IMG/VR virus record: IMGVR_UViG_3300031841_000703 | Coordinates: 1 to 32,800 of that record | DNA length: 32,800 bases | Reading direction: 5' to 3' (one strand) | From: a virus | Shown: in pieces, positions 19,448-32,800 of the stretch | Layout of the letters: each line of letters begins with the position of its first letter | Position numbering within the stretch: position 1 is the stretch's first letter | The notes under the pieces: model-generated | Database searches by the model: none | What the model was told of the DNA's origin: nothing | The model's input: the letters and a program-made list of their open reading frames with translations, nothing else | Translations under genes and position numbers: made by a program

Positions 19448-19449
19448 CG

Positions 19450-20205
19450 ATGGGTCAAAACTATGGTGTGAGTGTACCCAAAGATGATTTAAAGTTTTAC
19501 TTTGATATCAATAATCCCAAATGTGTAGATGCTAGTGCAGCTATTACATCTTCTACGACACTTACAAATTTAGTCGATAGTAGTTATACTTTTGCGCCTT
19601 ACGACACTTCGTCTACTGGTTTAAGTGCCATGTCTTTTGCACAAGATAACGGTAATTATGTATATGCACAAAATGCTAAAGTAGGTGGCGAACCGTGTTG
19701 GGTTGGATCAAATATACCAAGAGTTAATGAGTTTACTTTTATTTGTTGGTATAAACTTGCATATGGAACAGCTACTCAAAGGGCAGAAAACATTTATGGC
19801 GGTGGCTTTTCGGGCAGAACATCTTTTTATTTAGTACCTAGTGGCACAAGTACTTATAATGGTGTTTTAAGATATTCTGATGCAGGTAGTACAAATTATT
19901 ATTCAGCAGGTGCAAGTTACGGTGCAACAGATAATAATTGGCATTGTTGGGCAGCGGTAGATTATGGCCCTGATTATTACCATAAAACAGATTTTTATAT
20001 TGATGGTGTGTTTAAAGTAACAGGAACAAGCAATACGTCTTTCGATACACCTGATGGTGACGGTACGCCTACATGGGGATCATGGTCTTTAACTTATGGA
20101 AACTTTGGTGGCAGCACTAATTTATTTATGTACTATGAAAAAGCACTTACTGCTGCTGAGATATATAAAATTTACCAAAGCACTAGAACAAGGTTTGGTG
20201 TGTAA
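19450..20205 (+). CDS. LamG/concanavalin-like adhesin 1
   Basis: A 251-residue protein. The N-terminal part VPKDDLKFYFDINNPKCVD, then EFTFICWYKLAY, NNWHCWAAVDYG, KTDFYIDGVFKVTGT, and the end YYEKALTAAEIYKIYQSTRT plus RFGV follow the laminin-G-like (concanavalin-type) beta-sandwich pattern common in phage adhesins. Such domains usually bind sugars. It is the first of three neighbouring proteins of this design. The stop overlaps the next start (TAATG) within a 19-base sequence that recurs at the next junction. Sugar binding is family knowledge; the target is unknown. Confidence 0.75.
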   Translation: MGQNYGVSVPKDDLKFYFDINNPKCVDASAAITSSTTLTNLVDSSYTFAPYDTSSTGLSAMSFAQDNGNYVYAQNAKVGGEPCWVGSNIPRVNEFTFICWYKLAYGTATQRAENIYGGGFSGRTSFYLVPSGTSTYNGVLRYSDAGSTNYYSAGASYGATDNNWHCWAAVDYGPDYYHKTDFYIDGVFKVTGTSNTSFDTPDGDGTPTWGSWSLTYGNFGGSTNLFMYYEKALTAAEIYKIYQSTRTRFGV

Positions 20206-21410
20206 TGGCACTAGCACATGGATCAGGCATAACTACAGATGGGCTTGTGTTAGCTTATGACAATGGCAGTAGTCAGTCATGGAAGGGCGCACCCACTACC
20301 AATCTAATTGATTCGTGGAATCCAGAAACACCTGCGTCAACGATGTATTGGTGGTACAGTTCTGGTAATCAATATTTTACTAAATCTAATGTTCTTGAAG
20401 ATGAAGTAAACGGTTATTACTACGCCGATGTGTATATTACTACATCTTCACAAAGTGGTTATTATAACGGACAGTTGTACACTGGCAATGTCACTCTTAA
20501 CTCAGGATCATACTATAGCATTTCTGCTTGGGTTTGGACAGATAGAGCCTTTCAGTTAAGGCTTGGCATGATCAAGAATGGTTCGCCTTACAGTACATAT
20601 ATAACAATGCAAGCACATCAATTATCAGTTGGTTGGAATTATGTAGTCACAAGTACATCTTCTGCAATGAGTGCAACATATACAGATGCACGTTTTGAAA
20701 TGGCTTTTGGTTACGCACCTGCTGGCACACACTTAAAAATATACAAGCCACAAGTAGAGGCATTATCTTTTGCTACACCATTTACACCTACAAGTAGATC
20801 AACAACACAAGCATTAACTGATTGGGTAGGTGGGCAGACGATTACAATGCTGTCTTTGAATGATTACAACAGTACGGAAAAGTTTTCTTTTGATGGTACA
20901 AACAACACAGATAGAGGAATAAGTATACCTAGTCAAAATTTAAACAACAGCTATTCTGTAGAAGCGTGGTTTAAATTTGATACAGGTGGTCTATTACAAG
21001 GTATTATAGGCGATTATCAATATGGTTGGTATAGATTTGTTTTAAGTACAAATAACCAAATCTACGCAGGCCACATAAATAATGCTAGTGGGTACAGCTA
21101 TAATTTTATTACAGCACCTACCCAATTATCTACAGGTACATATCACCATGCTGTACACGTTTTCGATGAAAACGCAGGTCAAAGAATTTATATTAATGGG
21201 TCTTTAGATGCTTCTAATACAAATTCCCTAAACTTTTTATTAAGCAGTAGAGGCCCACAGTACATAGGACAAGATAGAAATTCTGCACCCTCAACAAGAA
21301 ATAACTTAGATGGTACAATTCCAATATTACGAATATACAAAAACAAAGCACTAAGTGCATCAGAAGTGGCAAAAAACTATAATGCGTTACGTGGAAGGTT
21401 TGGTGTGTAA
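20205..21410 (+). CDS. LamG/concanavalin-like adhesin 2 with extra N-terminal carbohydrate-binding-like domain
   Basis: A 401-residue protein. It starts with DGLVLAYDNGSSQSW, then APTTNLI and a beta-sandwich of about 170 residues (GYYYADVYITTSS, YSISAWVWTDRAFQLR, TDARFEMAFGYAPAGTHLKI) resembling CBM-type domains. The second half is a LamG-type domain: YSVEAWFKFDTGG, HAVHVFDENAGQRIYINGSL, QYIGQDRNS and LRIYKNKALSASEVAKNYNA followed by LRGRFGV. The two-domain build is seen in other phage fibre proteins. It is coupled by TAATG to both neighbours. Binding to host polysaccharide is inferred. Confidence 0.78.
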   Translation: MALAHGSGITTDGLVLAYDNGSSQSWKGAPTTNLIDSWNPETPASTMYWWYSSGNQYFTKSNVLEDEVNGYYYADVYITTSSQSGYYNGQLYTGNVTLNSGSYYSISAWVWTDRAFQLRLGMIKNGSPYSTYITMQAHQLSVGWNYVVTSTSSAMSATYTDARFEMAFGYAPAGTHLKIYKPQVEALSFATPFTPTSRSTTQALTDWVGGQTITMLSLNDYNSTEKFSFDGTNNTDRGISIPSQNLNNSYSVEAWFKFDTGGLLQGIIGDYQYGWYRFVLSTNNQIYAGHINNASGYSYNFITAPTQLSTGTYHHAVHVFDENAGQRIYINGSLDASNTNSLNFLLSSRGPQYIGQDRNSAPSTRNNLDGTIPILRIYKNKALSASEVAKNYNALRGRFGV

Positions 21411-22054
21411 TGGGTTGTGCAGCAGGGGCAAACGTAGTTACAGACAATTTAAATTACTATGTAGATGCCAAAAACACAAAATCTTACAGCGGATCAAGTG
21501 GTTATGGTGGCACGAATTGGGTAGATTTAACAGGCAATAATGATGTGTCATTATCTGGTGTTTTTTACAGTACAGATGGCTATTTTGTTTTAGATGGCAC
21601 TAACGATTTAATCAGCCAAGTAGTTACCGTAGGCACAGCGAAAACAGTCAGCATTTGGGTGCGGCAATCTACAGGTACTACTTTAGGTTTACTGCATAGA
21701 AGTGATTGGCGTGAGCGTGTTTTTCAGGGCAGTATTGTTTTAATAGCAAGTAATGGCACGTATTTAACATTAGATTATACCGATTTAGTTGGCGATACAG
21801 ACTATAATATTTGTTATACAATAGATGGCACAGCGGCAAAAGCTTATGTAAATGGCGATTTGGCAGTAACAGGTACGCTTGCGTCGAACATGAATACAGG
21901 AAGCTATACGTACTATCACGGTTATCAGTGTTCTGGAAGTAGCTGCTACTATATTAACGGGCGTGTTTATGCTATTAGTTATTATGATACTGCTTTAACT
22001 GCTGATCAGATAAAAGCAAACTTTATAGCATTACGCGGTAGAATTGGGATTTAG
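21410..22054 (+). CDS. LamG/concanavalin-like adhesin 3
   Basis: A 214-residue protein. VVTDNLNYYVDAKNTKSYSG, WVDLTGNNDVSLSG, YFVLDGTNDLIS, TVSIWVRQSTG-like strands, then AKAYVNGDLAVTGTL and the end YDTALTADQIKANFIALRGR follow the same LamG-type pattern as the two preceding proteins, but without the extra N-terminal domain. The ending (RIGI) parallels RFGV in its neighbours. A cysteine-rich turn YQCSGSSCYYINGR replaces the segment in the others. Probably a third member of the same adhesin set; whether all three are on the virion cannot be told. Confidence 0.75.
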   Translation: MGCAAGANVVTDNLNYYVDAKNTKSYSGSSGYGGTNWVDLTGNNDVSLSGVFYSTDGYFVLDGTNDLISQVVTVGTAKTVSIWVRQSTGTTLGLLHRSDWRERVFQGSIVLIASNGTYLTLDYTDLVGDTDYNICYTIDGTAAKAYVNGDLAVTGTLASNMNTGSYTYYHGYQCSGSSCYYINGRVYAISYYDTALTADQIKANFIALRGRIGI

Positions 22055-22057
22055 CAC

Positions 22058-24124
22058 ATGGCAAATACAGACAAAGATATTTTAATAACGCCTAACGATG
22101 GGTCAAGCACTGATGACCCTAAAATAGAGTTTAAAGGTGCAGATGCTAGCACTACGGCGCAGACAATAACCGCAACTGTTTACCCTACAAATTCAGGCAC
22201 ATTATCTTTTGATGGTTCAGCAGGCCAGTTATTTTCTATTACTAACGATATGTCAGGCACTATTTTCAGTGTTAACGATGTGTCAGGCATACCCAGTATC
22301 GAAGTAGATGACGATGGCACAATACGTTTAGCTGAATATTCTGGTAATATTCTTGTTGGTACAGCTACAGATGACGGTTCTAGTAAACTACAAGTAAACG
22401 GTACAACTTCTATTGATGGCGTTTTAAAATTAGAAACAACCTCAGATCAAGCCTTCGAAATGCGTCAACTGTCTACAAAGGCTAATGATTGGAATTATAT
22501 AAGTTTTTTCGGCAGAGATGGCACAAGAGATGCTTATGTAGGCACTGATGCCGATGGCGATTTAATGTTATATTCTGATAAAAATAGCAGTTATATAGAA
22601 ATGGCTGCTAGTCCTAATATTAATGGTAATGTAATAGTTCATGCTGGCAATGTCAGCAGTTATGTTGGTGGCCCTACTCTTACGGCAACGGCTTCTGGCG
22701 CGATTTCAAACGGTGATACTTGCTGTGTAAACACTGATGGCACTGTAAGCGCAATAGCTTCTTCTGCTGTATCGCAAGGCGCGACAACGCCAGCAACAAC
22801 AGGCGGTGGTGTAACCTATTATAGTCATATGGCAATAAACAGTGCTGGTACTATTTTGGCAGTGTTTGCAGATAGTAACTACTATTTAAGCGCACAAGTA
22901 GGCACAGATAACAACGATGGTACTGTTACATGGGGAACTAAAGCAACTTTACTAAGCAACAATATACAAAATTGTAGGGTTGCTTATATACCAAGTTTAG
23001 ACAGATTTCTTGTTGTCTATCATAACAATTCGCTTTCTAGCAGAACGTATGCAGGCGTAATTACAATTTCTGGTACTACACCTTCTTTTACAGCAGGTGG
23101 TTATGCAACAAATGTTTGCTTTGATATTGACGTTGCAACAAATACAGACACAAATAATGTGTTTGGTGTTTGCAAATCAAACAATCAACCACGTTGCTTT
23201 ATGGCAAGAATTGACCCTGACAACACAACCACAGCACAAATTACTAGCGCAGATACAATTAATTATACTGGGTCAGGAACTTTTAATGATGAAGGGGTTA
23301 CCTATGACAGTAGTGTGCAAAGGGCAGTGGTAACTTGGCAAAATAGTTCTAGAATTTATGCTGAAACAATAGAAAATGACACTTCTTCTAATTGGTATGG
23401 CAGAAATTATACTAGTCAGGTTCTTATAAACGGCTCTTATTTAGGTTCTTTTGATACTTCTAATTCGATAGGTATTAATCTAGCAATTGCAAGCAATGGC
23501 GCTGGCAAAGCTTGTGTCATTTACGATACAACAAGCGGCACACAAACACGTATATCACAATTAAGCGTAACCGCTTCAGGCGTTTCTTTAGATGGTGTTG
23601 TTACCTTAGATAGTGACGAAAGTTACGAAGCTGTAATTTGCTATGACAGTAATACAGACACCTTTCTTTGTGTTTACGAAACGCAAGATGGCAACACGCA
23701 AGGCAAGGTTGCTACTATTGGGGGCAGTGGTGTGACTTTAAGTTCTCAAACTACAATAGAAACATCAGCAAATAATCCTGTAAATATGTCGGCTATTTTT
23801 TCGACGGTTTCTAATCGTGGTTTATTTTTGTATTACGACAATAATGCATCAAACGTAGGTACGTATAATTTTTTCAATAATGCGTACACCAGTACAAACC
23901 TAACGACAGAAAATTATATAGGTATTGCAGATGCTGCCTATTCTAACGGCGCAACGGCAACAATACAAATTGTAGGGTCTGTCGATGACGCACAATCAAG
24001 CCTAACAGCAGGGCAACAGTATTACGTTCAATTAGATGGGTCATTAGGTTTAGCGCCTGCAACTGGTAAATCTGTTTTTGCTGGCACAGCGGTTAGTGCA
24101 ACAAAAATTATAGTGAAAGGTTAA
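22058..24124 (+). CDS. Large fibre/spike protein with propeller-like middle region
   Basis: A 688-residue protein. Residues about 1-230 form a fibre-like N-terminal region (ITPNDGSSTDDPKIEFKG, GTIRLAEYSGNILVG, NGNVIVHAGNVSSYVGG). Residues about 245-610 show recurring units of the form strand-turn-strand (RVAYIPSLDRFLVVYHNN, GVTYDSSVQRAVVTWQNS, VICYDSNTDTFLCVYETQ, SAIFSTVSNRGLFLYYDN), about four to six times, suggesting a beta-propeller like sialidase or Kelch folds. The C-terminus (NYIGIADAAYSNG to KSVFAGTAVSATKIIVKG) is a module seen in marine phage fibres. No catalytic residues are recognised. It is likely a receptor-binding or glycan-interacting protein. Confidence 0.7.
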   Translation: MANTDKDILITPNDGSSTDDPKIEFKGADASTTAQTITATVYPTNSGTLSFDGSAGQLFSITNDMSGTIFSVNDVSGIPSIEVDDDGTIRLAEYSGNILVGTATDDGSSKLQVNGTTSIDGVLKLETTSDQAFEMRQLSTKANDWNYISFFGRDGTRDAYVGTDADGDLMLYSDKNSSYIEMAASPNINGNVIVHAGNVSSYVGGPTLTATASGAISNGDTCCVNTDGTVSAIASSAVSQGATTPATTGGGVTYYSHMAINSAGTILAVFADSNYYLSAQVGTDNNDGTVTWGTKATLLSNNIQNCRVAYIPSLDRFLVVYHNNSLSSRTYAGVITISGTTPSFTAGGYATNVCFDIDVATNTDTNNVFGVCKSNNQPRCFMARIDPDNTTTAQITSADTINYTGSGTFNDEGVTYDSSVQRAVVTWQNSSRIYAETIENDTSSNWYGRNYTSQVLINGSYLGSFDTSNSIGINLAIASNGAGKACVIYDTTSGTQTRISQLSVTASGVSLDGVVTLDSDESYEAVICYDSNTDTFLCVYETQDGNTQGKVATIGGSGVTLSSQTTIETSANNPVNMSAIFSTVSNRGLFLYYDNNASNVGTYNFFNNAYTSTNLTTENYIGIADAAYSNGATATIQIVGSVDDAQSSLTAGQQYYVQLDGSLGLAPATGKSVFAGTAVSATKIIVKG

Positions 24125-24125
24125 T

Positions 24126-24398
24126 ATGAAAGTAATAGCGCAGCGAAATACAAATGTTGTTTTGTATGTATTTGAAGATAGTCAAGTTATTACATTTACT
24201 GACGGTCAAATGCATTTAGGCGATCCAGTTGTTGATATGGTCGCAGACTGTAATTTAGAAACTTGTATTTTGTATGAAAATATCAGCAACGTGCCAGCCG
24301 ATTATCAAGGTTGGAAATATGATTTCGATGGCACAACATGGACAGAAAATGAAGCCTTTAAAAACTGGGCTGCTGATGATGAACGAATAGAGGAATAA
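24126..24398 (+). CDS. Small hypothetical protein (90 aa)
   Basis: A 90-residue protein (MKVIAQRNTNVVLYVFEDSQ start), mostly beta-type in the first half with an acidic, Trp-containing C-terminus (WKYDFDGTTWTENEAF). The pattern, ending in a Trp-Asn-type segment, resembles small proteins that accompany fibre genes in marine phages. It begins one base after the preceding stop and is followed immediately by the repeat protein. Function unknown; fibre chaperone or tail accessory by position. Confidence 0.55.
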   Translation: MKVIAQRNTNVVLYVFEDSQVITFTDGQMHLGDPVVDMVADCNLETCILYENISNVPADYQGWKYDFDGTTWTENEAFKNWAADDERIEE

Positions 24399-26075
24399 AT
24401 GTTAGGTTTTGTTGCACTTGCAAAAATTACACTTGCTGATGATGCGGCAGAACAAAATTACGTTTTCGAGGCTGGAACGGGAACATTTACAGTTACTGGT
24501 CAAACAGTAAATCTTAACAACCAGCCGATTATAACAGCAGAAACTGGTTCTTTTGCACTTACAGGCCAAGAAAATCAGTTTCTATTAAATAACGTCAATG
24601 GTTTCGGCTCTTACGCATTAACTGGGCAAGATGCGCAGTTTAAGTTTAGCATGGTTGCTGAACGTGGTATTTTTGCGCTTAGTGGTTTTCCACACGTTAA
24701 AAACATTACAATGGACGGTAGGCATGTCGTTCATTCATTTACAGGGCAAGATAGCGTATTTTCTATTAATTACCCTGTTGATAACGGTTCGTTTGCATTA
24801 TCAGTATTTGACGCTGAGTTATTACGAAGCGTATTAGCGGAAACAGGCACTTTTACGTTAACTGGGCAAGACGCTATTTTACAGGGTGTTTTGTCGTTTG
24901 TTGCAGATGCAGGTACATTTACTGCAACAGGCCAAGATGCTAGTTTCACTGTAACGCGCAAAGCTGATGCAGGTTCTTTTGCGGCAACAGAACAAGATGC
25001 AAGTTTTGCTATTAATTTTCCTGTTAATGTTACTAGCAACCCATCTGGAGCAACGACAGTACAATATGATGTAAGCGTAGCCAGTGGTACGAATGAATAC
25101 GGTTCAGGTAATAAGTATTATATAGACGGGCTGGTGGGTGCTAGTCCTACGCTACAGCTTATGGCAGGTGTTACCTATAGATTTAGTCAAGCAGACGGTA
25201 GCAACGGAGGCCACCCGTTACGGTTTTCAACAACCCCAAATGGAACGCATGGTGGCGGCACAGAATACACTACAGGGGTCACAGTTAACGGTGTAGCTGG
25301 TTCTAGTGGTTCATATACCGAAATAACCCCTACGGCTACTACACCGCGTTTATTTTACTATTGTACCGTACATGCTGGCATGGGTGGGCAGGCAAGTGCA
25401 AATGGTGGTGTACACACGCTAACAGGGCAAGATGCTACCCTTATAAAAGATTTAAAACTAGCAGCAGATAAGGCAGATTTTGTACTAACGGGTCAAACAT
25501 CTGTATTTAATGTAAAAATAAGTGCAGCACATGGTTCGTTTATTCTAACGGGTCAAGACATTGCTCTTAATAAAGCAGTTAATATTAATGCAGAAGTTGG
25601 TAATTTTGTTCTTACTGGGCAAGATGCGCTTAAAGGTATTAGCGAAATTGCAGCAGCCGCATCTTATGCGTTAACTGGGCAAGATGTTTCGTTTAATGTA
25701 ACTCTTAATGCAGAAACGGGTAGCTTTACCTTAACAGGGCAAGATGCCCTAAAAGACATTATCGAAATAATACCTTCAGCGTCTTTTGTTTTAACAGGGC
25801 AAGACGTTACCTTTAGAGTAAACATTTCTTTAATAGCTGAACACGCTATATTTACCCTTACTGGGCAAGATGCAGAACCTAAATTTGTGCTAATACGCAC
25901 TGAATTTGATGGTTATGAACAGCAGTCAGAATTTATAAAAGCAAGCACAGTAGAATTGACTACGGGCAAGCCAAACATAGTTGAAATAGAAGCCGTAGAC
26001 GAAAATGATTTACAGCTATTTGAACAGACGCAAAATAGTGTTACAATAGAACCAACATTTAACAGGGCAGCATAA
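24399..26075 (+). CDS. TGQD-repeat tail protein with a cupredoxin-like insertion
   Basis: A 558-residue protein. The unit G-S-F-x-L-T-G-Q-D-A recurs about 17 times at spacings of about 20-24 residues (for example FTLTGQDAI, FTATGQDAS, FVLTGQDALK, YALTGQDVS), with two degenerate copies (FALSGF, FALSVF). Between repeats 9 and 10 (residues about 208-335) lies a domain with GGHPLRFS (H272) and YYCTVHAGMGG (C322, H325, M328), the His...Cys-x2-His-x2-Met set of a type 1 copper site as in plastocyanin-like cupredoxins. The C-terminus returns to acidic sequence (EIEAVDENDLQLFEQ). Likely an elongated adhesin or tail-side fibre; copper binding is a prediction. Confidence 0.7.
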   Translation: MLGFVALAKITLADDAAEQNYVFEAGTGTFTVTGQTVNLNNQPIITAETGSFALTGQENQFLLNNVNGFGSYALTGQDAQFKFSMVAERGIFALSGFPHVKNITMDGRHVVHSFTGQDSVFSINYPVDNGSFALSVFDAELLRSVLAETGTFTLTGQDAILQGVLSFVADAGTFTATGQDASFTVTRKADAGSFAATEQDASFAINFPVNVTSNPSGATTVQYDVSVASGTNEYGSGNKYYIDGLVGASPTLQLMAGVTYRFSQADGSNGGHPLRFSTTPNGTHGGGTEYTTGVTVNGVAGSSGSYTEITPTATTPRLFYYCTVHAGMGGQASANGGVHTLTGQDATLIKDLKLAADKADFVLTGQTSVFNVKISAAHGSFILTGQDIALNKAVNINAEVGNFVLTGQDALKGISEIAAAASYALTGQDVSFNVTLNAETGSFTLTGQDALKDIIEIIPSASFVLTGQDVTFRVNISLIAEHAIFTLTGQDAEPKFVLIRTEFDGYEQQSEFIKASTVELTTGKPNIVEIEAVDENDLQLFEQTQNSVTIEPTFNRAA

Positions 26076-26401
26076 TGAGTTTTTACATTAAACAAAACGA
26101 TACAGCACCTTCTTTAAAGGCAACACTAAAAGACGGTGACGGTAATGTGATTAATTTAACGGATGCTAGTGTACGCTTTCACATGCGTACTGTCGGCGGC
26201 GCAAGCAGCGTAGTAGACGCAGCAGCTACAGTAAATAGCCCTGCAACTGCTGGTGTTGTGCAATACGATTGGGTTGCAACAGACACTGTTACTACGGGAG
26301 CATATCAAGCAGAATTTGAAGTAACCTATGGCAATAGTAAGATTGAGAGTTTCCCAAATAACGGGTATATACGGGTGCAAATCGTTGATGACATTACCTA
26401 G
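26075..26401 (+). CDS. BppU N-terminal-like baseplate/fibre attachment protein
   Basis: A 108-residue protein. YIKQNDTAPSLKATLKDGDG (about 4-23), VRFHMRTVGG, VQYDWVATDTVTTGAYQAEF and FPNNGYIRVQIVDD match the N-terminal domain of baseplate upper protein BppU (PF10651-like), a small beta domain often found alone in phages. In lactococcal phages BppU anchors receptor-binding proteins. Here it probably provides an attachment for a nearby adhesin. The start overlaps the stop of the repeat protein (TAATG). Confidence 0.7.
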   Translation: MSFYIKQNDTAPSLKATLKDGDGNVINLTDASVRFHMRTVGGASSVVDAAATVNSPATAGVVQYDWVATDTVTTGAYQAEFEVTYGNSKIESFPNNGYIRVQIVDDIT

Positions 26402-26411
26402 GACAGAATTA

Positions 26412-26663
26412 ATGGCAGCAGAAAATTGGCACTTGTCTAAAACAATACCAATTACTTTTTTAGTTGGTATCATAGCGCAAACGTTTATTTTAGGTTGGTT
26501 AATAGCCGATGCGCAAAATACTATAGAAACTAACAGCGCAAACATCATGCGCAATCAGGCAGATATTCAGGTATTAGAAAATAAAGTAAATGACCATGCT
26601 GTGATGATGGGTCGTATAGATGAAAACCTGAAGTTTTTGCGTGAATATATAGAAAAGCAATAA
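26412..26663 (+). CDS. Small membrane protein with coiled coil (lysis cassette)
   Basis: An 83-residue protein. I use ATG 26412 because AGGACAG lies 8 bases upstream. An ATG at 26388 would overlap the previous gene and gives an extra MTLPRTEL. After ENWHLSKTIP comes a hydrophobic segment ITFLVGIIAQTFILGWLIA (about 12-30), then a charged helix with ENKVNDHAVMMGRIDENLKF. The one-helix plus coiled-coil design is common in phage lysis regions and is often annotated as Rz-like or holin-associated. I cannot say which; there is no lipoprotein signal. Confidence 0.6.
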   Translation: MAAENWHLSKTIPITFLVGIIAQTFILGWLIADAQNTIETNSANIMRNQADIQVLENKVNDHAVMMGRIDENLKFLREYIEKQ

Positions 26664-26665
26664 AA

Positions 26666-27133
26666 ATGCCTATTTTGGAGAGTATAGCCGCAGCAAATGC
26701 GGCTTATTCCGTCATACGCACGGCGCTCAGTAACGGGAGGGAAACCGCTGGGCTTATAGGCGCTGTAGGAAAATTTATAGGCGCAGAAGAAGATGTAAAA
26801 GACGCGTTAGCTAAGAAAAAAAGAAACCCAATTGCGGCTATTGCTGGCGGTCAGCAAGGGGATTGGGAAGAATTTCAAGCATTAGAAAAGTTAAAGGAAC
26901 AGCGTCGAGAACTCGAAAGTTGGGTAAGATTGTACGGTTCTAGTGGGCAATGGGATAGGTGGCAAGAGTGGCAAAAAGAAGCCAGAAAACAACGTCAAGC
27001 AGCTAAGAAAGCGCGAGAAATAGCAAGGCAAAAACGGAATGAACAAATTGCATTAGGTGCTGCAATACTATTAGCGGTTGGTGGCGCAGTTGGTGGGGTT
27101 TATTATATCGGTGTTTTAGTAGGGAAATTTTGA
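26666..27133 (+). CDS. Conserved phage protein with C-terminal membrane helix
   Basis: A 155-residue protein. The start LESIAAANAAYSVIRTALSN is a pattern conserved in marine phages near lysis genes. The centre is strongly charged and Trp/Gln-rich (GDWEEFQALEKLKEQRRE, WDRWQEWQKEARKQRQ). The C-terminus is a single membrane helix (IALGAAILLAVGGAVGG to VYYIGVLVGKF), so it is tail-anchored with its bulk in the cytoplasm. Function unknown; a role in lysis timing is suggested by neighbours. The frame continues open past the TGA stop for 45 codons (see separate entry). Confidence 0.65.
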   Translation: MPILESIAAANAAYSVIRTALSNGRETAGLIGAVGKFIGAEEDVKDALAKKKRNPIAAIAGGQQGDWEEFQALEKLKEQRRELESWVRLYGSSGQWDRWQEWQKEARKQRQAAKKAREIARQKRNEQIALGAAILLAVGGAVGGVYYIGVLVGKF

Positions 27134-27271
27134 GTTGGGAAAGTAATAATAATAGAAAAAAATAGAAAATATATTGTATATGACAAAAACGGAAAAATAA
27201 TTATAATTACCCGTGATAAAAAAATAGTGAATAACATAGTTAGGAAATCAAATGGTACAAGTAACGTCTAA
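27134..27271 (+). CDS. Small protein-like open frame without a normal start codon
   Basis: The 118-base gap before the next gene holds a frame, the same as the upstream gene after its TGA, reading from about 27143 V-I-I-I-E-K-N-R-K-Y-I-V-Y-D-K-N-G-K and ending at TAA 27269-27271. It has the look of a short conserved phage protein (alternating I/V and charged residues). No ATG, GTG or TTG exists in frame near its beginning; ATA codons at 27146, 27149 and 27152 follow GGGAAAG. An ATA start, TGA read-through or a lost start are all possible. It overlaps the start of the next gene. Confidence 0.35.
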   Translation, partial: VGKVIIIEKNRKYIVYDKNGKIIIITRDKKIVNNIVRKSNGTSNV

Positions 27272-27479
27272 AATTCTTGACGAATTAAAAATATTACCGC
27301 GCTTGATGATGTTGGCAATAACTATAATGTGTTTTCAGGTTACAAATTGGATGATTAGCCTTGAAGATCCGACACTAAATCAATCTGGGTTTTGTAGCGT
27401 AATTTTTGGATGTTTCAGCGCCTGTTTTGCGGTGTGGTTAGGAAAAGAAGCTAAAACAGATCGGAGTATTGTAGAATGA
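27252..27479 (+). CDS. Small two-helix holin-like membrane protein
   Basis: A 75-residue protein beginning MVQVTSKILDELKILPRLMM. The hydrophobic segments MMLAITIMCFQVTNWMI (about 19-35) and CSVIFGCFSACFAVWLG (about 48-64) give two predicted membrane helices, and the charged end KEAKTDRSIVE is typical of a class II holin. I know similar proteins (DELKxLPRLMMLA) from marine phages. A good ribosome binding site (AGGAAA) precedes ATG 27252. The stop overlaps the next gene by ATGA. In lysis, a holin opens the inner membrane for the endolysin. Confidence 0.65.
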   Translation: MVQVTSKILDELKILPRLMMLAITIMCFQVTNWMISLEDPTLNQSGFCSVIFGCFSACFAVWLGKEAKTDRSIVE

Positions 27480-27859
27480 TTGGGTCTTTGATTGCGCCAC
27501 TAGCTGAATTGGCTGGTGGCTGGCTTAAAGGAAAAGCTGATGCAAACGCAGCAGCAGCAAATTTAAAGCTGGTAGAGGCAGAAGCAAAAGCCGCAATAAT
27601 GAAAAGTGAGAAAACAAGCCTTGCGGAGTGGGAAAAGCTGATGGCGCAAGGCGCACAGCATAGCTGGAAAGATGAGATGTTCAGTATAGTGCTAGTTTTG
27701 CCCTGCTGTTTAGCCTTCTGTGGTGAATGGGGCAGGCAAATAGTAACAAATGGTTTTGCAGCACTAGATGCTATGCCCGATTACTACCGTTATTTTTTAG
27801 GTTGTGCGATAGCTGCAAGTTTTGGTATTCGTGGAGCAACAAAATTTTGGGGTAAGTAA
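27476..27859 (+). CDS. Holin, GTA_holin_3TM-like
   Basis: A 127-residue protein. LAELAGGWLKGKADANAAAA and the helical region up to AEWEKLMAQGAQHSWKDEMF, followed by FSIVLVLPCCLAFCG and the end YYRYFLGCAIAASFGIRGAT plus KFWGK, match the phage holin family GTA_holin_3TM (PF11351), first known from gene transfer agents of alphaproteobacteria. The protein has a soluble N-terminal helix and two to three membrane segments. It lies between another small membrane protein and the endolysin region, in agreement with a holin role. Two holin-like proteins adjacent may act as holin and antiholin (inference). Confidence 0.8.
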   Translation: MIGSLIAPLAELAGGWLKGKADANAAAANLKLVEAEAKAAIMKSEKTSLAEWEKLMAQGAQHSWKDEMFSIVLVLPCCLAFCGEWGRQIVTNGFAALDAMPDYYRYFLGCAIAASFGIRGATKFWGK

Positions 27860-27952
27860 ATGGAAATGTGGCAATGGATAATGTTATTTTCGGCAGTAAG
27901 TTTAAATACATTGGTTAATTGTTTACGGCTATACTTAGAAAGTAAAAGATGA
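27860..27952 (+). CDS. Tiny membrane peptide (30 aa)
   Basis: ATG 27860 follows the holin stop directly (TAAATG) and TGA 27950-27952 overlaps the next ATG. The product MEMWQWIMLFSAVSLNTLVN followed by CLRLYLESKR is a single hydrophobic helix with a basic end. Its tight ATGA coupling and membrane character fit the lysis cassette. The function is unknown; an antiholin-like or regulatory peptide is possible. Short length keeps confidence moderate. Confidence 0.55.
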   Translation: MEMWQWIMLFSAVSLNTLVNCLRLYLESKR

Positions 27953-28206
27953 AAATAAATCTTAGCTTGTGGTTCGCTTTAATTGTGCAGTTGGTTGCGT
28001 TAGTCTGGTATATTAGCGGCCTTGTACATGATTTAAACAATTTAAAAGAACAAACATCAGCACAACAGGATATAATTGATTTACTGTCAGAAGATGTAAA
28101 CGATTTATGGACATTTTGCACTTTTACGGAAAACAAGTGGGCAGAAGCATATACTAGCGATATGGTCTACCAAAGATTATGCGGTACTAAGGAAATAGTG
28201 GAGTAA
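27949..28206 (+). CDS. Signal-anchor membrane protein, possible i-spanin-like
   Basis: An 85-residue protein with an N-terminal membrane helix (LSLWFALIVQLVALVWYISG, about 5-24) followed by a charged helix (LNNLKEQTSAQQDIIDLLSE) that could form a coiled coil, and two Cys near the end (TFCTFTE, RLCGTK). A small type II membrane protein with periplasmic coiled coil just before an endolysin is the pattern of Rz-type inner-membrane spanins. No separate outer-membrane Rz1 lipoprotein was found nearby, so the call is weak. Confidence 0.5.
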   Translation: MKINLSLWFALIVQLVALVWYISGLVHDLNNLKEQTSAQQDIIDLLSEDVNDLWTFCTFTENKWAEAYTSDMVYQRLCGTKEIVE

Positions 28207-28211
28207 AACCA

Positions 28212-28829
28212 ATGGCTAAAGGTGACGCGCTAAAATATCTGCAAAAGCAATGCAATGTAATGGCTGATGCTAAGTTTGGTATCAATACGGCTAGAGCAAT
28301 AGCAAAAAAATACAAATGGTCACAATTACGGGCAGCACACATTTTAGGTCAATGCGCCCATGAAAGCGGAAACTTTATTAGAACAGAAGAAAGCACGTAT
28401 TATAGTACAGCCAAACGAATTAGAAAAACTTGGCCTACACGATTTAAAACCGATGCTGACGCTGAACCTTACGTAAAGAACCCAAAGGCTTTAGCTGACA
28501 AGGTTTACGGTGGTCGTATGCAAAACCAAGGCAGGGGTTATTTTTGGCGTGGTCGGGGTTTTATACAATTAACGGGCGCTATGAATTATAAATCTTTTGC
28601 TGAAGATACAAAGCTTTATGAAGTGTTAAAAAATCCCGATTTAGTTGCAACAGAATACGCAATGCAAAGTGCTATTTGGTTTTTTGACGTAAACGATCTT
28701 TGGGATGATTGTGACAATGGTTTAGACGTTGAAAACATAAAGTTCATTACCAAACGAATTAACAACGGTTACAAAGGTTTAAAAGACCGCATAGAAAAAA
28801 CTAATAAGATTTATAACTGGCTTAGTTAA
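28212..28829 (+). CDS. Endolysin, GH19 (chitinase-like) lysozyme
   Basis: A 205-residue protein with ribosome binding site GGAG. HILGQCAHESGNF carries Glu51, the general acid of GH19 lysozymes, and E60 in RTEESTYYS is the likely second catalytic Glu, nine residues on as in phage GH19 endolysins. YGGRMQNQGRGYFWRGRGFIQLTG (two pieces, about 97-121) with the GRGxxQLTG motif and then NYKSFAE is diagnostic of the family. It cleaves peptidoglycan glycan strands. There is no signal peptide, so it needs a holin. Its TAA stop overlaps the stop of the opposing gene. Confidence 0.9.
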   Translation: MAKGDALKYLQKQCNVMADAKFGINTARAIAKKYKWSQLRAAHILGQCAHESGNFIRTEESTYYSTAKRIRKTWPTRFKTDADAEPYVKNPKALADKVYGGRMQNQGRGYFWRGRGFIQLTGAMNYKSFAEDTKLYEVLKNPDLVATEYAMQSAIWFFDVNDLWDDCDNGLDVENIKFITKRINNGYKGLKDRIEKTNKIYNWLS

Positions 28830-29326
28830 CTAAAAAATAAACTGTTTTTTTGGAAATGATATACGTTAACTTTTCTTTTTGACGTTTCAATCCAAGTGTT
28901 TTTATGCGAAATACCTTTTCTATCGCCTAGTCGTTTCCAGCCAACGCCTTTCCAAAATTCATTGCTAGGTAAATCATCAGCGCAACCACAAGCAAAATCG
29001 TGTATGCCTCTGCTTTGACCGTGTTTCATTCCAGCGTCTAACAATGCTTTACCTCTTTCAATTCTTCTTGCATCCTCTTGAATAGCAATTTGATTTACTT
29101 TTGACCATTTGCCAAAAGACATTAAAAGAAAACCAACTTTATCACCATTTTCTTCACATATCCATAGTTTGTCATTACAAGTATTAGACCACCTTTTACC
29201 AGTTTTTTCACCAGTGATTGCTGCTTGATATGCAGTATTGGGTATAAACCCTAAAGCATTGCTTTCTATTTTTGATAAAGAATGAATATATTTTAAATCA
29301 TTCAAGTTTGCTAATCTTACTTTCAT
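28826..29326 (-). CDS. GNAT-like acetyltransferase
   Basis: A 166-residue protein on the minus strand. The start MKVRLANLNDLKYIHSLSK is a typical GNAT beginning, followed by KLWICEENGDKVGFLLMSF (strands 2-4), VNQIAIQEDARRIERGKALL in the acetyl-CoA binding region, and ASxx/EFWKGVGWKRLG near the end, as in other GNAT proteins. The RxxGxG/A loop is degenerate (RRIERGKA). The ATG is preceded by AAGGA 8 bases upstream and by a good promoter. It faces the lysis genes and its stop codon overlaps that of the endolysin (TTAA). It may modify a host or phage molecule; the substrate is unknown. Confidence 0.75.
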   Translation of the reverse strand: MKVRLANLNDLKYIHSLSKIESNALGFIPNTAYQAAITGEKTGKRWSNTCNDKLWICEENGDKVGFLLMSFGKWSKVNQIAIQEDARRIERGKALLDAGMKHGQSRGIHDFACGCADDLPSNEFWKGVGWKRLGDRKGISHKNTWIETSKRKVNVYHFQKNSLFFS

Positions 29327-29355
29327 AAAAGTATTCCTTAGTAAGCATTGTTAAA

Positions 29356-29384
29356 ATTATACAAAACTTTACTTATTAGGTCTA
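29356..29384 (-). promoter_or_regulatory. Sigma-70-like promoter for the GNAT gene
   Basis: On the minus strand TAGACC (29384-29379) is separated by 17 bases from a perfect TATAAT (29361-29356). The GNAT ribosome binding site AAGGA and ATG lie 20-30 bases downstream. Four of six bases match the -35 consensus. The -35 box lies within the end of the upstream small gene, so this gene has its own promoter rather than depending on the early operon. Confidence 0.6.
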
Positions 29385-29587
29385 GGCATAGGCTTCACAA
29401 GCTCATTAGAGGCGTATGCAGTGCCTTTGCAGTGTATTAGCACTGTGTCATGGTGATTTTCCATTATGGCGAACATAGCGCCTTTAGAATAGCTACACGC
29501 ATCATAGCTAGGGAATAGAATTTGATGTGTTATTTGTTCGCCTTCAACAAAATAACTTAATATCATAAAAGTGTAATACTTTAGCAT
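29369..29587 (-). CDS. Small hypothetical protein (72 aa) with hydrophobic N-terminus
   Basis: The start is ATG 29587, because AAAGGA lies nine bases upstream of it, while an ATG nine bases earlier (29596) directly abuts that ribosome binding site. The product MLKYYTFMILSYFVEGEQIT has a short hydrophobic start, then FPSYDACSYSKGAMFAIM and HCKGTAYASNEL with two Cys. It could be exported, with a disulfide, but the hydrophobic part is short for a signal peptide. I do not recognise the family. It stands alone between the GNAT gene and the early operon terminator. Confidence 0.55.
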   Translation of the reverse strand: MLKYYTFMILSYFVEGEQITHQILFPSYDACSYSKGAMFAIMENHHDTVLIHCKGTAYASNELVKPMPRPNK

Positions 29588-29650
29588 TGTAATCATTCCT
29601 TTAAAATTTTATTATTGATATGGGGCAGGTTCATTAAAATCTAATAAACA

Positions 29651-29666
29651 GCGTTATCAGTAACGC
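29651..29666 (-). terminator. Hairpin after the early minus-strand operon
   Basis: GCGTTA (29651-29656) and TAACGC (29661-29666) pair around TCAG, immediately after the HTH gene in the direction of transcription. On the minus strand it is followed by TGTTTATTAGATTTT, a T-rich but interrupted tract. A weak intrinsic terminator is plausible. The remaining bases of the 85-base gap hold the leader and ribosome binding site of the next gene. Confidence 0.4.
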
Positions 29667-29672
29667 ACTGCC

Positions 29673-29927
29673 TCACGATCTAATTTGATCCCAAGGTGCA
29701 GGCGGAAGCGTTACTTCATTTGGTATTAAAAGTTCTTGTGCAACGGACGTTCTGCCACCATCTTTTTTAAGAAACGCTACGCCTTGATGATGCGCTATCC
29801 TACGTAGTGAATTTTGATCTACGCCTAATTGTTTGCTGGCTTCCATTATTGTTAAATGGCTATGGTCTAACAGCAAACATTTAATTTCTGCTTTGTGGCG
29901 TTCGCGCATTTGTCTATAAATACTCAT
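29673..29927 (-). CDS. Small helix-turn-helix DNA-binding protein candidate
   Basis: An 84-residue protein. After a basic start (MSIYRQMRERHKAEIKCLLL) comes LTIMEASKQLGVDQNSLRRI (about 25-44), a clear helix-turn-helix pattern with the recognition helix NSLRRIAHHQG, and then a Pro-rich tail (PNEVTLPPAPWDQIRS). It resembles small phage or transposase-type HTH proteins. It is translationally coupled to the upstream membrane peptide by ATGA and is the last gene of the early operon. A regulatory role is inferred; the target site is unknown. Confidence 0.6.
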   Translation of the reverse strand: MSIYRQMRERHKAEIKCLLLDHSHLTIMEASKQLGVDQNSLRRIAHHQGVAFLKKDGGRTSVAQELLIPNEVTLPPAPWDQIRS

Positions 29928-30043
29928 TGGAACACCAGCACAAAAAATAAACCAACATACAACATGCCAACTAAAGACAGTGCGCCTATTATATCACCTA
30001 TGGTAATTGTCTTTGCTATTTCTATTAATTCTCTAAGTGTCAT
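29924..30043 (-). CDS. Membrane peptide (39 aa)
   Basis: The frame from ATG 30043 to TGA at 29924 encodes MTLRELIEIAKTITIGDIIG followed by a long hydrophobic helix (ALSLVGMLYVGLFFVLVFQ). It overlaps both neighbours by ATGA. The upstream part is a short charged helix. A membrane-bound peptide between two HTH-type genes is unexpected. It may be a small toxin- or antiholin-like, or a superinfection-type, membrane peptide; that is speculation. The good coupling and the clean helix support it as a gene. Confidence 0.55.
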   Translation of the reverse strand: MTLRELIEIAKTITIGDIIGALSLVGMLYVGLFFVLVFQ

Positions 30044-30261
30044 ATTACTGTACCTGCTTCTTTGATTAGAAAATATTGCGCTACTTCAGTGTATTCGTCA
30101 ATTCGTAACCGTTTAGTTTCTATGTGGTGGCCTGCATCGCGCAAACGTTTTATTCGTGCAGCTAACCTAAAACACCCGTATGAATTTAAAGCCTGTTTAG
30201 GTGTAATAGGATTTTTCCGTAGATGCTGCAAAATCATTTGTTCTTGTGATATACGGGTCAT
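30040..30261 (-). CDS. HTH_55-like helix-turn-helix protein
   Basis: A 73-residue protein. MILQHLRKNPITPKQALNSY, then FRLAARIKRLRDAGHHIETK and AQYFLI, match the phage winged-helix family HTH_55 (pattern I-T-x3-A-L, R-L-A-A-R-I, L-R-x2-G-x-x-I). A good ribosome binding site (GAAGGAAA) lies before ATG 30261. Such proteins are common in early regions of temperate and lytic phages and may control early gene expression. It overlaps the downstream membrane peptide by ATGA. Confidence 0.8.
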   Translation of the reverse strand: MTRISQEQMILQHLRKNPITPKQALNSYGCFRLAARIKRLRDAGHHIETKRLRIDEYTEVAQYFLIKEAGTVI

Positions 30262-30528
30262 TTAATTTCCTTCATAACGTTCGTTTAAGTGTTCGCTGAT
30301 GTCTTTAGCGTATTTTTCCATTATCGCGTCTGCTAGGCGCTTGTGTAGCTTCCTAGCGCGTTCTGGGTGATAAAGGTTTTCTGTACTAAAGCTTGCATGT
30401 GACCAAGCTGGTTCGTCTGAACCGTAAGCATTAGAACCGCCTGATTGCATGTCAAAATACACTTCTATGGTTATTTCTTTACCACGCAATTCGCATGTGA
30501 AATAATCGTAATTATCTGTAATGCTCAT
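30262..30528 (-). CDS. Hypothetical early protein (88 aa)
   Basis: An 88-residue protein starting MSITDNYDYFTCELRGKEIT, with beta-type sequence followed by acidic and helical parts (YHPERARKLHKRLADAIMEK, ending HLNERYEGN). The family is unknown to me. The start overlaps the stop of the preceding gene by ATGA and its own stop abuts the next ATG. Being part of the early operon suggests a role in host take-over or DNA metabolism, which I cannot specify. Confidence 0.6.
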   Translation of the reverse strand: MSITDNYDYFTCELRGKEITIEVYFDMQSGGSNAYGSDEPAWSHASFSTENLYHPERARKLHKRLADAIMEKYAKDISEHLNERYEGN

Positions 30529-30872
30529 TGTTCGTACTTTTCTGCTGCTTCATCAATACGGTTCATTATTACAGCAACAGCAACACCTAAGTCTTTTAAT
30601 GATGCTTCTTCTGCACATTCGCGTATTGTTTGCCAATCGTGTTTTTTAACAAACGGTGATGGTTTGTTGATTTGTGGCATATCAAACTTAACGCTATCGC
30701 GTTCTAAATCTTGTGGGCTTTGTGGGCGCACTCTATAAGAGTTTAAGAACTCTAAAAGTTGCGCTTTTGCTGTTGGTACGTCAACTTCTTTGAAATTGCC
30801 TTTACCCAAAGCTTTTTTTGCGTCTAATTGTGTGCCTACCCATTGGCCTTTATTGTCTGTATATAGTTTCAT
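30525..30872 (-). CDS. Hypothetical early protein (115 aa)
   Basis: I start this gene at ATG 30872, because GGAAGGAACAAACCAA precedes it, rather than at an upstream frame-opening ATG at 30917 with no ribosome binding site and overlap into the previous gene. The product begins MKLYTDNKGQWVGTQLDAKK, has VDVPTAKAQLLEFLNSYRVR, and ends in an acidic helix (VIMNRIDEAAEKYEQ). The opening KxxxTDxxGQWVGTQxDAKK resembles proteins seen in other phages and looks like a short conserved domain; no function known to me. Confidence 0.6.
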   Translation of the reverse strand: MKLYTDNKGQWVGTQLDAKKALGKGNFKEVDVPTAKAQLLEFLNSYRVRPQSPQDLERDSVKFDMPQINKPSPFVKKHDWQTIRECAEEASLKDLGVAVAVIMNRIDEAAEKYEQ

Positions 30873-30897
30873 TTGGTTTGTTCCTTCCGTTAAGAAT

Positions 30898-31473
30898 TTA
30901 ATAATCTTCACCATCAAGCATTACTTTTGATGGTCTTTGTATTACAGTTTGTTTAACGCCATCGCGTATATCGTGCGCTTTGACTGTAGCTACACAATCT
31001 ATTTGTGACCCTTTTTTCCATTTTTGTGTGCCTTTATAGATAACAACGTTGTTATCAGCGTCACGACATATGTTAATATAGGAAAACCCGTACATTGTTT
31101 CTAATTCTACAATGTGCATAACGATTACTGTAAATGACTGACGTTCACCTACGTTACCAACCCATGCACATTTAGCGTCTTGTTCTGCCCATTTAGCAGC
31201 TTGTGCAGCGCGTTTATCAAGTATGGCAACCATTTTATCGCGCATATTGTCAGTAGGTTTACCGTATGTCTGTATTCCGTAATTTACAGCGTTAAAAAAA
31301 CCTATGCCATCGTTTGATGCTTCATAGCCAGAAACAAATTCTATAATTTCTGCTGCACGTTCATCAGATGCAAGCCAGTTTTTGCGTTTTGTGTTAGCAG
31401 CATTAGCTAATTTACGCGCCTCAATAGACGGGTAATAATGATGTTCATAATCGTGGGTTTCGTCGTATGCCAT
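30898..31473 (-). CDS. Hypothetical early protein with possible OB-fold-like C-terminus (191 aa)
   Basis: The N-terminal half is helical and charged (EARKLANAANTKRKNWLASD, DNMRDKMVAILDKRAAQAAK). The C-terminal half, VGNVGERQSFTVIVMHIVEL, then ADNNVVIYKGTQKWKKGSQI and CVATVKAHDIRDGVKQTVIQ, has repeated beta strands like an OB-fold and resembles uncharacterised proteins in phage replication regions. A role in binding nucleic acid is suggested but unproven. A hairpin of G7/C8 lies just upstream of its ribosome binding site (GAAAGG). Confidence 0.6.
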   Translation of the reverse strand: MAYDETHDYEHHYYPSIEARKLANAANTKRKNWLASDERAAEIIEFVSGYEASNDGIGFFNAVNYGIQTYGKPTDNMRDKMVAILDKRAAQAAKWAEQDAKCAWVGNVGERQSFTVIVMHIVELETMYGFSYINICRDADNNVVIYKGTQKWKKGSQIDCVATVKAHDIRDGVKQTVIQRPSKVMLDGEDY

Positions 31474-31488
31474 TGGAAAAACCTTTCT

Positions 31489-31506
31489 GGGGGGGATACC
31501 CCCCCC
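31489..31506 (-). promoter_or_regulatory. Perfect G-tract/C-tract hairpin in leader of the 30898-31473 gene
   Basis: Seven G (31489-31495), ATA, eight C (31499-31506) on the plus strand form a 7-bp pure G:C stem with a three-base loop. On the minus strand it lies between two early genes and ends immediately upstream of AGAAAGGTTTTTCC, which contains the ribosome binding site of the downstream gene. No T-tract follows directly, so it is not a typical terminator; it may be a leader structure or mRNA processing or stability element. Confidence 0.45.
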
Positions 31507-31512
31507 TGTTAG

Positions 31513-32061
31513 TTAGAAATTATAATCGTGAAATTTAGAAGGTGCAGTTGCTAATGCGTGGCGTCCGATAGCTGAGTAATAATATCCGTCTTTGCGTCTA
31601 CGGATACGCACAGTGTCATTTTTCGCGTTAGTATTATATAACCATTTTTGTTCATGGTTATTTACAGTGTAACCTGAAAAACCACCTTTTACGGTTTCTG
31701 GTTTCCATGTTGTATCAAGTTGCGCGTCAACTAATCTAACTTCTAGTGTTCGTGGTGATACAACTTTGACTATTTCATACGGGTGTTTATCAGAATAACC
31801 GTGAAAATTGGCGTGTGTATAATCAATAGCTTCAACATTGTATACGTAAGTGTTGATGTATTCGCCAGAGCGACTAACTGGTAATTGCTCAATAAAACTT
31901 TCTGCATCTGTACACATATCAAAAGTTTTATAAGCAACAGAATTAAGTTCTAATCTGTCACCTTTAACACCGTTTACGTATCTTTTATCGCAAATGTGGC
32001 TACGTTGACCATCACGGCTAGTAATTTTTTCGGTTACTGTAATTACGTACTGTCTAAACAT
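31513..32061 (-). CDS. Hypothetical first gene of the early minus-strand operon (182 aa)
   Basis: A 182-residue protein with an excellent ribosome binding site (GGAGGAAC, ATG 32061) and an upstream promoter. It starts MFRQYVITVTEKITSRDGQR. The C-terminal half holds KHPYEIVKVVSPRTLEVRLV, then KDGYYYSAIGRHALATAPSK, a pattern seen in uncharacterised phage proteins with beta-rich folds. No catalytic motif is recognised. Its position as the first gene after the promoter suggests early expression. Function unknown. Confidence 0.65.
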   Translation of the reverse strand: MFRQYVITVTEKITSRDGQRSHICDKRYVNGVKGDRLELNSVAYKTFDMCTDAESFIEQLPVSRSGEYINTYVYNVEAIDYTHANFHGYSDKHPYEIVKVVSPRTLEVRLVDAQLDTTWKPETVKGGFSGYTVNNHEQKWLYNTNAKNDTVRIRRRKDGYYYSAIGRHALATAPSKFHDYNF

Positions 32062-32086
32062 TAAAAGTTCCTCCGTTTATAAGTTA

Positions 32087-32119
32087 AGTATATACATCTA
32101 TACGTAAAGCACAAGTGCT
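32087..32119 (-). promoter_or_regulatory. Early operon promoter overlapped by a palindrome
   Basis: On the minus strand TTGTGC (32114-32109) is spaced 16 bases from TATACT (32092-32087). The palindrome AGCAC-AA-GTGCT (32108-32119) covers the -35 box, as expected for a repressor operator. The start would lie about 20 bases upstream of the GGAGGAAC ribosome binding site. The opposite, RusA-side promoter is not clear: no good -10 was seen, and the only ribosome binding site-like motif (AAAGG 32158-32162) is too far from that ATG. Confidence 0.5.
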
Positions 32120-32188
32120 AATTTGTAAACTAAGTAAGAAAAAGCAAAAATAATTATACAAAGGCGCAAATTCCTGTACCTTGCGGCT

Positions 32189-32626
32189 ATGTACAAAGTA
32201 GAAATTGAAGTATCTGGGCAACCGATTGGCAAGGCTAGGCCACGCTTTGTAAGAAGCGGTAAAACCTACACGCCAGCAAAGACCGTTGACTATGAACGGC
32301 GCATACATGCTGCTGCATGGGCTGCTATGGTTAAACAAGACGTATACCAAACATTACGTCCTGTAAGCGTAGAAATAATAGCGTTTATGCAGATACCTAG
32401 TTCATGGTCAAAAGTGAAACAATTACACGCTGAATACAACGCTATCAGTCATACAAGTAAACCCGATTTAGATAATATTGTGAAAGTGGCCTTAGACGGG
32501 CTTCAAGGTACTTTGTTTAAGAGTGATGCGCAGGTAACAAGTATTAAAGCTAGAAAGATGTTTTGTCATCCTGATCGTGGCGCATTTCTTTATATGGCGG
32601 TATCATGGACTGAAGAAGGCGAATAA
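32189..32626 (+). CDS. rusA: RusA-family Holliday junction resolvase
   Basis: A 145-residue protein. The N-terminus VEIEVSGQPIGKARPRFVRS, then KTYTPAKTVDYERRIHAAAW, and KPDLDNIVKVALDGLQG with a later SDAQVTS, match RusA (PF05866). Active-site acids are D93, D95 and D113, with spacings of 2 and 18, near the 2 and 19 of E. coli RusA (D70, D72, D91). RusA resolves four-way junctions formed in recombination or replication. There is no strong ribosome binding site before ATG 32189. The 3' end overlaps the opposing Ref-like gene by 37 bases. Confidence 0.88.
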   Translation: MYKVEIEVSGQPIGKARPRFVRSGKTYTPAKTVDYERRIHAAAWAAMVKQDVYQTLRPVSVEIIAFMQIPSSWSKVKQLHAEYNAISHTSKPDLDNIVKVALDGLQGTLFKSDAQVTSIKARKMFCHPDRGAFLYMAVSWTEEGE

Positions 32627-32800
32627 ATCCAATCTGCGCCGTATGTTTCACGCCACAGCTTCGGTTCTTTGTGTATCGCTATTTTAGTCTGATCCCAAAG
32701 CCCTTGATGATGCCCCTCACATAACGGAATAGCAGTGCTATCAGGCCGTTTCTCAGTGCTAAATCTATCGTGGATTGGATGATGCGCTGTTGTAGGGCTG
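32590..32800 (-). CDS. Ref-like HNH nuclease (5' end outside window)
   Basis: On the minus strand the frame is open from the window edge to TAA at 32590-32592. The visible C-terminal part reads TAHHPIHDRFSTEKRPDST, then AIPLCEGHHQGLWDQTKIAI, then WRETYGADWIYS. This fits the phage Ref / RecA-dependent nuclease family (PF16786-like), an HNH-type fold in which the His and Cys residues bind zinc and the catalytic metal. Phage P1 Ref cleaves DNA in a RecA-dependent way. The N-terminal part is missing here, so length and full domain content are unknown. It is adjacent to, and antisense-overlapping with, the RusA gene. Confidence 0.75.
   Translation of the reverse strand, partial: SPTTAHHPIHDRFSTEKRPDSTAIPLCEGHHQGLWDQTKIAIHKEPKLWRETYGADWIYSPSSVHDTAI

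What the first reader, a model, noticed from the sequence alone, without database searches (positions are those of the whole stretch)
27134..27271. Conserved-looking small frame with no normal start codon
Downstream of the 26666 gene, in the same frame after its TGA, an open stretch encodes VIIIEKNRKYIVYDKNGK followed by IIIITRDKKIVNN, with the composition of a real small phage protein. No ATG, GTG or TTG is in place; ATA codons follow a GGGAAAG-like ribosome binding site. Read-through of TGA, a rare ATA start or a recent loss of the start codon are possible. Read-through would add a cytoplasmic or periplasmic tail to the upstream membrane protein.
Basis: partly seen in the sequence, partly recalled or inferred. 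Interest (0 to 1): 0.5.

Follow-up and report, generated by a model that had tools for sequence, protein, structure and literature searches.

The report
Start-less phage gene hiding a promoter
A short marine-phage reading frame that seems to lack a start codon is a broken copy of a real small gene, and the part of it that stays conserved looks like a promoter for the cell-lysis genes just downstream.

Summary
The frame is real. A profile made without the window finds it at E=7e-13 among 1240 six-frame pieces. Of 92 distinct relatives, 89 have ATG/GTG/TTG just before the core; the window, L014 and L200 do not. The nearest clade, sought by peptide, has GTG or TTG at the exact codon where the window has GTA (55 of 55). 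So this is a genuine small gene whose start is lost. UGA read-through and ATA initiation have no comparative support.

The frame holds ATGACA-16-TATAAT (27180-27207), 44 nt before the next gene's ATG, ahead of an endolysin gene. At this fixed place 49 of 92 members score at least 10/12, against 0.3% of background windows. In the nearest clade all 55 have TATAAT, with ATA at the promoter isoleucine in 55 of 55 but at the adjacent one in only 15. In the isolate CRP-406 it is the only 11/12 site in 29 kb. The window keeps this block as well as start-bearing relatives do, while the rest of its peptide has drifted.

Most likely the peptide is no longer made and the DNA is kept as promoter plus ribosome-binding region. 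There is no expression evidence.

The parts
26666..27133 (+). Upstream gene, 155 aa, C-terminal hydrophobic stretch (by eye); ends Gly-Lys-Phe-stop where most relatives shown end Trp-stop
   Evidence: phrog_32327, unknown function, E=3e-14
27114..27142 (+). Imperfect direct repeat (14 nt, 86%, spaced 15) at the gene junction
27143..27145 (+). GTA codon where the nearest relatives have their start codon (codon -16 from the conserved glycine)
27143..27271 (+). Start-less small gene: homologue of a conserved 30-45 aa phage gene, stop included
27180..27185 (+). -35-like hexamer ATGACA
27202..27207 (+). -10 hexamer TATAAT, 16 nt after the -35
27213..27216 (+). Expected transcription start (inferred from usual distance, not observed)
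   Evidence: inference
27242..27247 (+). AGGAAA, likely ribosome-binding site of the next gene, inside the small frame
   Evidence: sequence
27252..27479 (+). Next gene, 75 aa, two hydrophobic stretches (by eye); phrog_10198, unknown function
27476..27859 (+). 127 aa gene, phrog_2524, unknown function
28212..28829 (+). Endolysin (phrog_181, E=6e-44; Glyco_hydro_19)

Best explanation
The frame is a homologue of a conserved 30-45 aa phage gene that in many relatives overlaps the stop of the gene before it and, as a rule, the start of the gene after it. In the window lineage its start codon is gone, so the peptide is most likely not made, or only in traces. The middle of the gene doubles as a sigma-70-type promoter (ATGACA-16-TATAAT) and its 3' part holds the ribosome-binding site of the next gene. 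Host RNA polymerase would start near 27213-27216 and transcribe the 75-aa membrane protein and the genes up to the endolysin. Shown here: homology, missing start, and conservation of both hexamers beyond what coding explains. Inferred: promoter activity, transcription start, host sigma factor, that these genes form a lysis cassette, and that the peptide is not made.
For: Homology without circularity: E=7.1e-13. Start present in 89 of 92 distinct members and in 55 of 55 of the nearest clade, which was sought by peptide. Promoter: 49 of 92 score at least 10/12 at one fixed place versus 0.32% of 10365 background windows; TATAAT in 44 of 75 Ile-Ile members versus 5.8 expected from the loci's own codon usage. 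The -35, not used to define the TATAAT group, goes with it at synonymous sites: GAC:GAT 33:1 versus 20:21, TAT:TAC 15:0 versus 24:18. In the nearest clade TATAAT 55 of 55; ATA at the -10 isoleucine 55 of 55 but at the adjacent isoleucine 15 of 55; TAT:TAC 55:0; GAC:GAT 47:8. Permuted consensus pairs, up to 200 draws: mean 1.8 members, none reaching 49. CRP-406: only 11/12 site in the genome. Distance from -10 to the listed next ATG is 29-47 nt in 41 of 44 TATAAT members. Window drift: outside the promoter block its third-position share of differences is 0.38 against its 15 nearest relatives, versus 0.52 (5-95%: 0.43-0.62) in 260 pairs at matched distance, while the block itself is as conserved (0.14 versus 0.15 per nt).
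Against: No transcript, reporter or protein data. Inside the window alone an 11/12 site is not remarkable: shuffles give 0-4, and all promoter-like hits number 59 versus 46.5 +/- 5.9 in shuffles. Members are related: the promoter label needs six changes on a poorly resolved tree, only two forced by supported branches, and the independent-pairs test cannot reach significance; with representatives more than 25% apart the count is 7 of 23. 48 of 92 members lack TATAAT, including the nearest relatives by the downstream gene. In the central part compared with the whole family the window does not look relaxed, and a neutral simulation is only mildly against neutrality (probabilities 0.001-0.17 with hexamers excluded). 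Most alphaproteobacterial promoters studied lack the T at -7 (PMC8407463 abstract).
Confidence: 0.68

Rival explanations
1. The peptide is still made from a non-standard start: one of three ATA codons at 27146-27154, or the GTA, by re-initiation just after the upstream TGA.
For: The frame is intact over 45 codons; three ATA codons sit next to the expected start; a GGGAAAG stretch precedes them. The central part shows no extra relaxation against the whole family.
Against: The other start-less members of the 92 (L014, L200) have no ATA/ATT/ATC/CTG at -19 to -8. The nearest relatives use GTG or TTG (55 of 55). The window's flanks show a lower third-position share than matched pairs (0.38 versus 0.52).
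Confidence: 0.15
2. UGA read-through adds a 45-residue tail to the upstream membrane protein.
For: The frame is in phase with the upstream gene after one TGA.
Against: A long open frame (at least 50 codons) precedes in phase in 10 of 92 members (one more could not be determined), and the nine besides the window have their own start, so the phase is not a conserved feature. No fold at the junction beyond chance (z 0.25). In many relatives the small gene overlaps the upstream stop in another frame.
Confidence: 0.03
3. The conserved hexamers are a by-product of the peptide (Tyr-Asp-Lys and Val-Ile-Ile codons), and the window gene is simply a recent pseudogene with no promoter.
For: About half of the family lacks TATAAT but keeps the peptide; the start-bearing family is clearly coding (about 70% of differences between close pairs at third positions).
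Against: Codon choice: ATA 55 of 55 at the -10 isoleucine against 15 of 55 at its neighbour; 44 TATAAT against 5.8 expected; -35 synonymous sites go with the -10. Synonymous diversity is 0.00-0.06 at the hexamer codons in the TATAAT group and 0.4-0.7 at many other columns, though not all.
Confidence: 0.12
4. A sequencing or assembly error hides a normal start codon.
For: One base would be enough.
Against: L001 is identical at the junction, though possibly from a related sample. L200 and its sister L218, on two different contigs, show that start loss occurs in this family.
Confidence: 0.02

Closest known systems
Roseobacter phage CRP-7 gp66 (QBQ72859.1) and CRP-406 gp20 (XYH46214.1), hypothetical proteins
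   Same: Same small gene by sequence (tblastn E=8e-3 and 5e-2; both rows of the family profile); in CRP-406 it also stands before a short gene and a lysozyme gene and holds ATGACA-16-TATAAT.
   Different: Both have start codons; CRP-7 has no TATAAT there.
Intragenic sigma-70-type promoters of phages and bacteria (general knowledge, not tested against a catalogue)
   Same: Promoter inside the coding sequence of the preceding gene, close to the next start codon.
   Different: The gene is only 30-45 codons, so promoter and ribosome-binding site take up much of it; in some members the gene has lost its start while the promoter-like sequence remains.

Membership tests
Small gene family of CRP-406 gp20 / CRP-7 gp66 | Sequence homology of the peptide | tested here: met
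   E=7.1e-13 with the window row left out of the profile
Small gene family of CRP-406 gp20 / CRP-7 gp66 | Same place: after the 155-aa-type gene, overlapping the next gene's start | tested here: met
   30 of 35 loci of the upstream gene carry it (L001, near-identical to the window, included); L031-L033 gave no match and L034-L035 end too early. Overlap of 27252 ATG:
Small gene family of CRP-406 gp20 / CRP-7 gp66 | Standard start codon before the core | tested here: not met
   None in the window; so a homologue, not shown to be a working member
Sigma-70-type promoter | -35 and -10 hexamers with 16-18 nt spacing | tested here: met
   11 of 12, spacing 16
Sigma-70-type promoter | Hexamers conserved at the DNA level beyond coding | tested here: met
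   members not independent
Sigma-70-type promoter | Transcription starts there | not testable with these tools
   needs RNA 5'-end mapping or a reporter
UGA read-through gene | In-phase extension conserved in relatives | tested here: not met
   in phase in 10 of 92, and nine of these have their own start

The most novel reading that the evidence does not exclude
The small gene is a portable promoter-plus-gene cassette in phages related to roseophages: one stretch of about 45 nt is under joint selection as protein and as promoter, it stands in front of at least three kinds of next gene, and when the start codon is lost the promoter is kept alone. Apparent conservation of the small protein would then be partly the shadow of a promoter.
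Probability: 0.45. Interest if true: 0.5.

Novelty: new member of a known kind. Interest (0 to 1): 0.38.

Why it matters
It gives a concrete, testable candidate for how genes before the endolysin are switched on in a large group of uncultured marine phages, with an isolate (CRP-406) that carries the same site. It also shows how a conserved-looking small frame can be kept for its DNA, a warning for small-protein surveys that rely on frame conservation alone.

Tried and rejected
ATA start, UGA read-through, assembly error and a mere by-product of the peptide: see the rivals.

TTG at 27130 (overlapping the upstream TGA) with a shift of frame on the run of seven A near 27156: considered from the sequence only; it needs an untested shift, and the alignments put the relatives' start at the GTA codon.

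RNA fold at the junction: none beyond chance (z 0.25).

Function of the peptide: no NCBIfam match; PHROG matches of unknown function only, best E 0.038; one PDB match, E 0.035, a designed protein, taken as chance. The peptide was not run against Pfam. No structure was predicted.

Promoter without the small gene: of 41 distinct relatives of the downstream gene in which the profile found no small gene, 1 (L109, 93 nt upstream) scores at least 10/12 within 130 nt; in some of these rows the start of the next gene was placed only roughly.

Genomes of bacteria: 62 stretches matched a pattern from A3, none was confirmed.

Earlier description. Of the 12 papers listed and the one I saw the listing only. 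In PMC12629253, which describes CRP-406, the word promoter does not occur in the main text (passages only). PMC8407463: abstract and two passages; listings only.

I therefore sought the nearest clade by peptide, which upheld the reading; the odds of the novel case stay at 0.45. That 3 of 3 start-less members found without the pattern (window, L014, L200) keep the promoter is not significant by itself (base rate 49 of 92).

Full report
What is there. The window is a virus record of 32800 bases, 39.5% G+C, with head, tail and lysis genes among those scanned. From 27134 to 27271 a frame is open in phase with the 26666 gene, after its TGA, with no ATG, GTG or TTG before its core. A second assembly, L001, is identical here.

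It has relatives. Searching with the upstream gene gave 35 loci; 30 of them, L001 included, carry the same peptide directly downstream or after one extra gene of about 60 codons. Their starts often overlap the upstream stop (GTGGTAA, ATGGTAA). Named relatives are hypothetical proteins of Roseobacter phages CRP-7 and CRP-406, with weak scores (E=8e-3 and 5e-2). With more loci, 92 distinct members were counted after two rows were dropped; 89 have a standard start at codons -19 to -8 from the conserved glycine, and the window, L014 and L200 do not. A profile without the window row gives E=7.1e-13.

The lost start. In the clade nearest to the window, sought by peptide, 55 of 55 distinct members have a start at codon -16 (GTG, twice TTG); the window has GTA there. 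In L200 and in L218, on another contig, the overlap has changed so that the upstream gene ends Phe-stop and no start remains. The window's upstream gene also ends Phe-stop, and the junction carries an imperfect 14-nt repeat. The order of events in the window is not resolved.

A promoter inside. The scan found ATGACA-16-TATAAT at 27180-27207, the only plus-strand site of 11/12 in 18000-32800 and one of three on both strands of the window. By itself that is not significant: shuffles of the window give 0-4 such sites. The family makes the case. 49 of 92 members score at least 10 at this one place, against 0.32% of 10365 background windows; 44 of 75 Ile-Ile members have TATAAT against 5.8 expected from their own codon usage. 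The -35, not used in defining the TATAAT group, is kept with it at synonymous positions. In the nearest clade, whose peptide patterns allow any codon, all 55 have TATAAT; the -10 isoleucine is ATA in 55 of 55 and its neighbour in 15 of 55. None of up to 200 permuted consensus pairs reached 49; the highest, 47, shares TATAAT and shifts the other hexamer by one base. In CRP-406 it is the only site of 11/12 in the record. The -10 lies 44 nt before the next ATG in the window, and 29-47 nt in 41 of the 44 TATAAT members; my listing gave 70-95 nt for L018, L195 and L197. The next gene is of at least three kinds. Relatives of the next gene without the small gene lack such a site in 40 of 41.

Coding or not. 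The start-bearing family is clearly coding: close pairs have about 70% of their differences at third codon positions, with or without TATAAT. So one stretch serves as protein and, in about half of the members, apparently as promoter. For the window, outside the promoter block, the third-position share against its 15 nearest relatives is 0.38, against 0.52 (5-95%: 0.43-0.62) in 260 pairs at the same distance, while the block itself differs by 0.14 per nt, as in those pairs (0.15). An earlier, partly circular comparison agrees. Against this, the window's central part looks like the others when compared with the whole family, and neutral simulation gives 0.001-0.17 depending on the relative. A loss of the start followed by relaxed constraint on the peptide fits best but is not proved.

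Limits. Members are related; the promoter label needs six changes on a tree of 60 columns with many unresolved forks, two of them forced, and 7 of 23 well-separated representatives score at least 10. 48 of 92 members lack TATAAT, including the nearest relatives by the downstream gene. Most alphaproteobacterial promoters studied lack the T at -7 (PMC8407463 abstract). The host was not tested; Roseobacter-type hosts are inferred from the named relatives. Of the genes downstream only the endolysin is identified; that the others act in lysis is inferred. No expression data exist here.

Verdict. The more useful finding is the conserved promoter-like sequence inside the frame.

Noticed in passing
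window 27860-27952 (+): A 30-codon frame with one hydrophobic stretch (MEMWQWIMLFSAVSLNTLVNCLRLYLESKR) fills the gap between the 127-aa and 85-aa genes; its stop overlaps the next ATG (ATGA). Too short for the ORF list.
   Followed up: no
window 26328-26663 (+): The listed start lies inside the preceding gene; ATG at 26412 (MAAENWHLSK...) is the likelier start.
   Followed up: no
window 31489-31505: GGGGGGGATACCCCCCC, a perfect stem of seven G-C pairs between minus-strand genes, terminator-like.
   Followed up: no
window 25585-25873: Internal repeats (about 72% alike over 170 nt) in the 558-aa tail-fibre-like gene.
   Followed up: no
L200 1351-1650 and L218: Sister loci on two contigs share a change that ends the upstream gene in Phe-stop and removes the small gene's start.
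   Followed up: partly
window 27135-27166: GKVIIIEKNRK weakly resembles the later NGKIIIITRDKK of the same frame (profile domain of 7.2 bits); partial duplication or low complexity.
   Followed up: no
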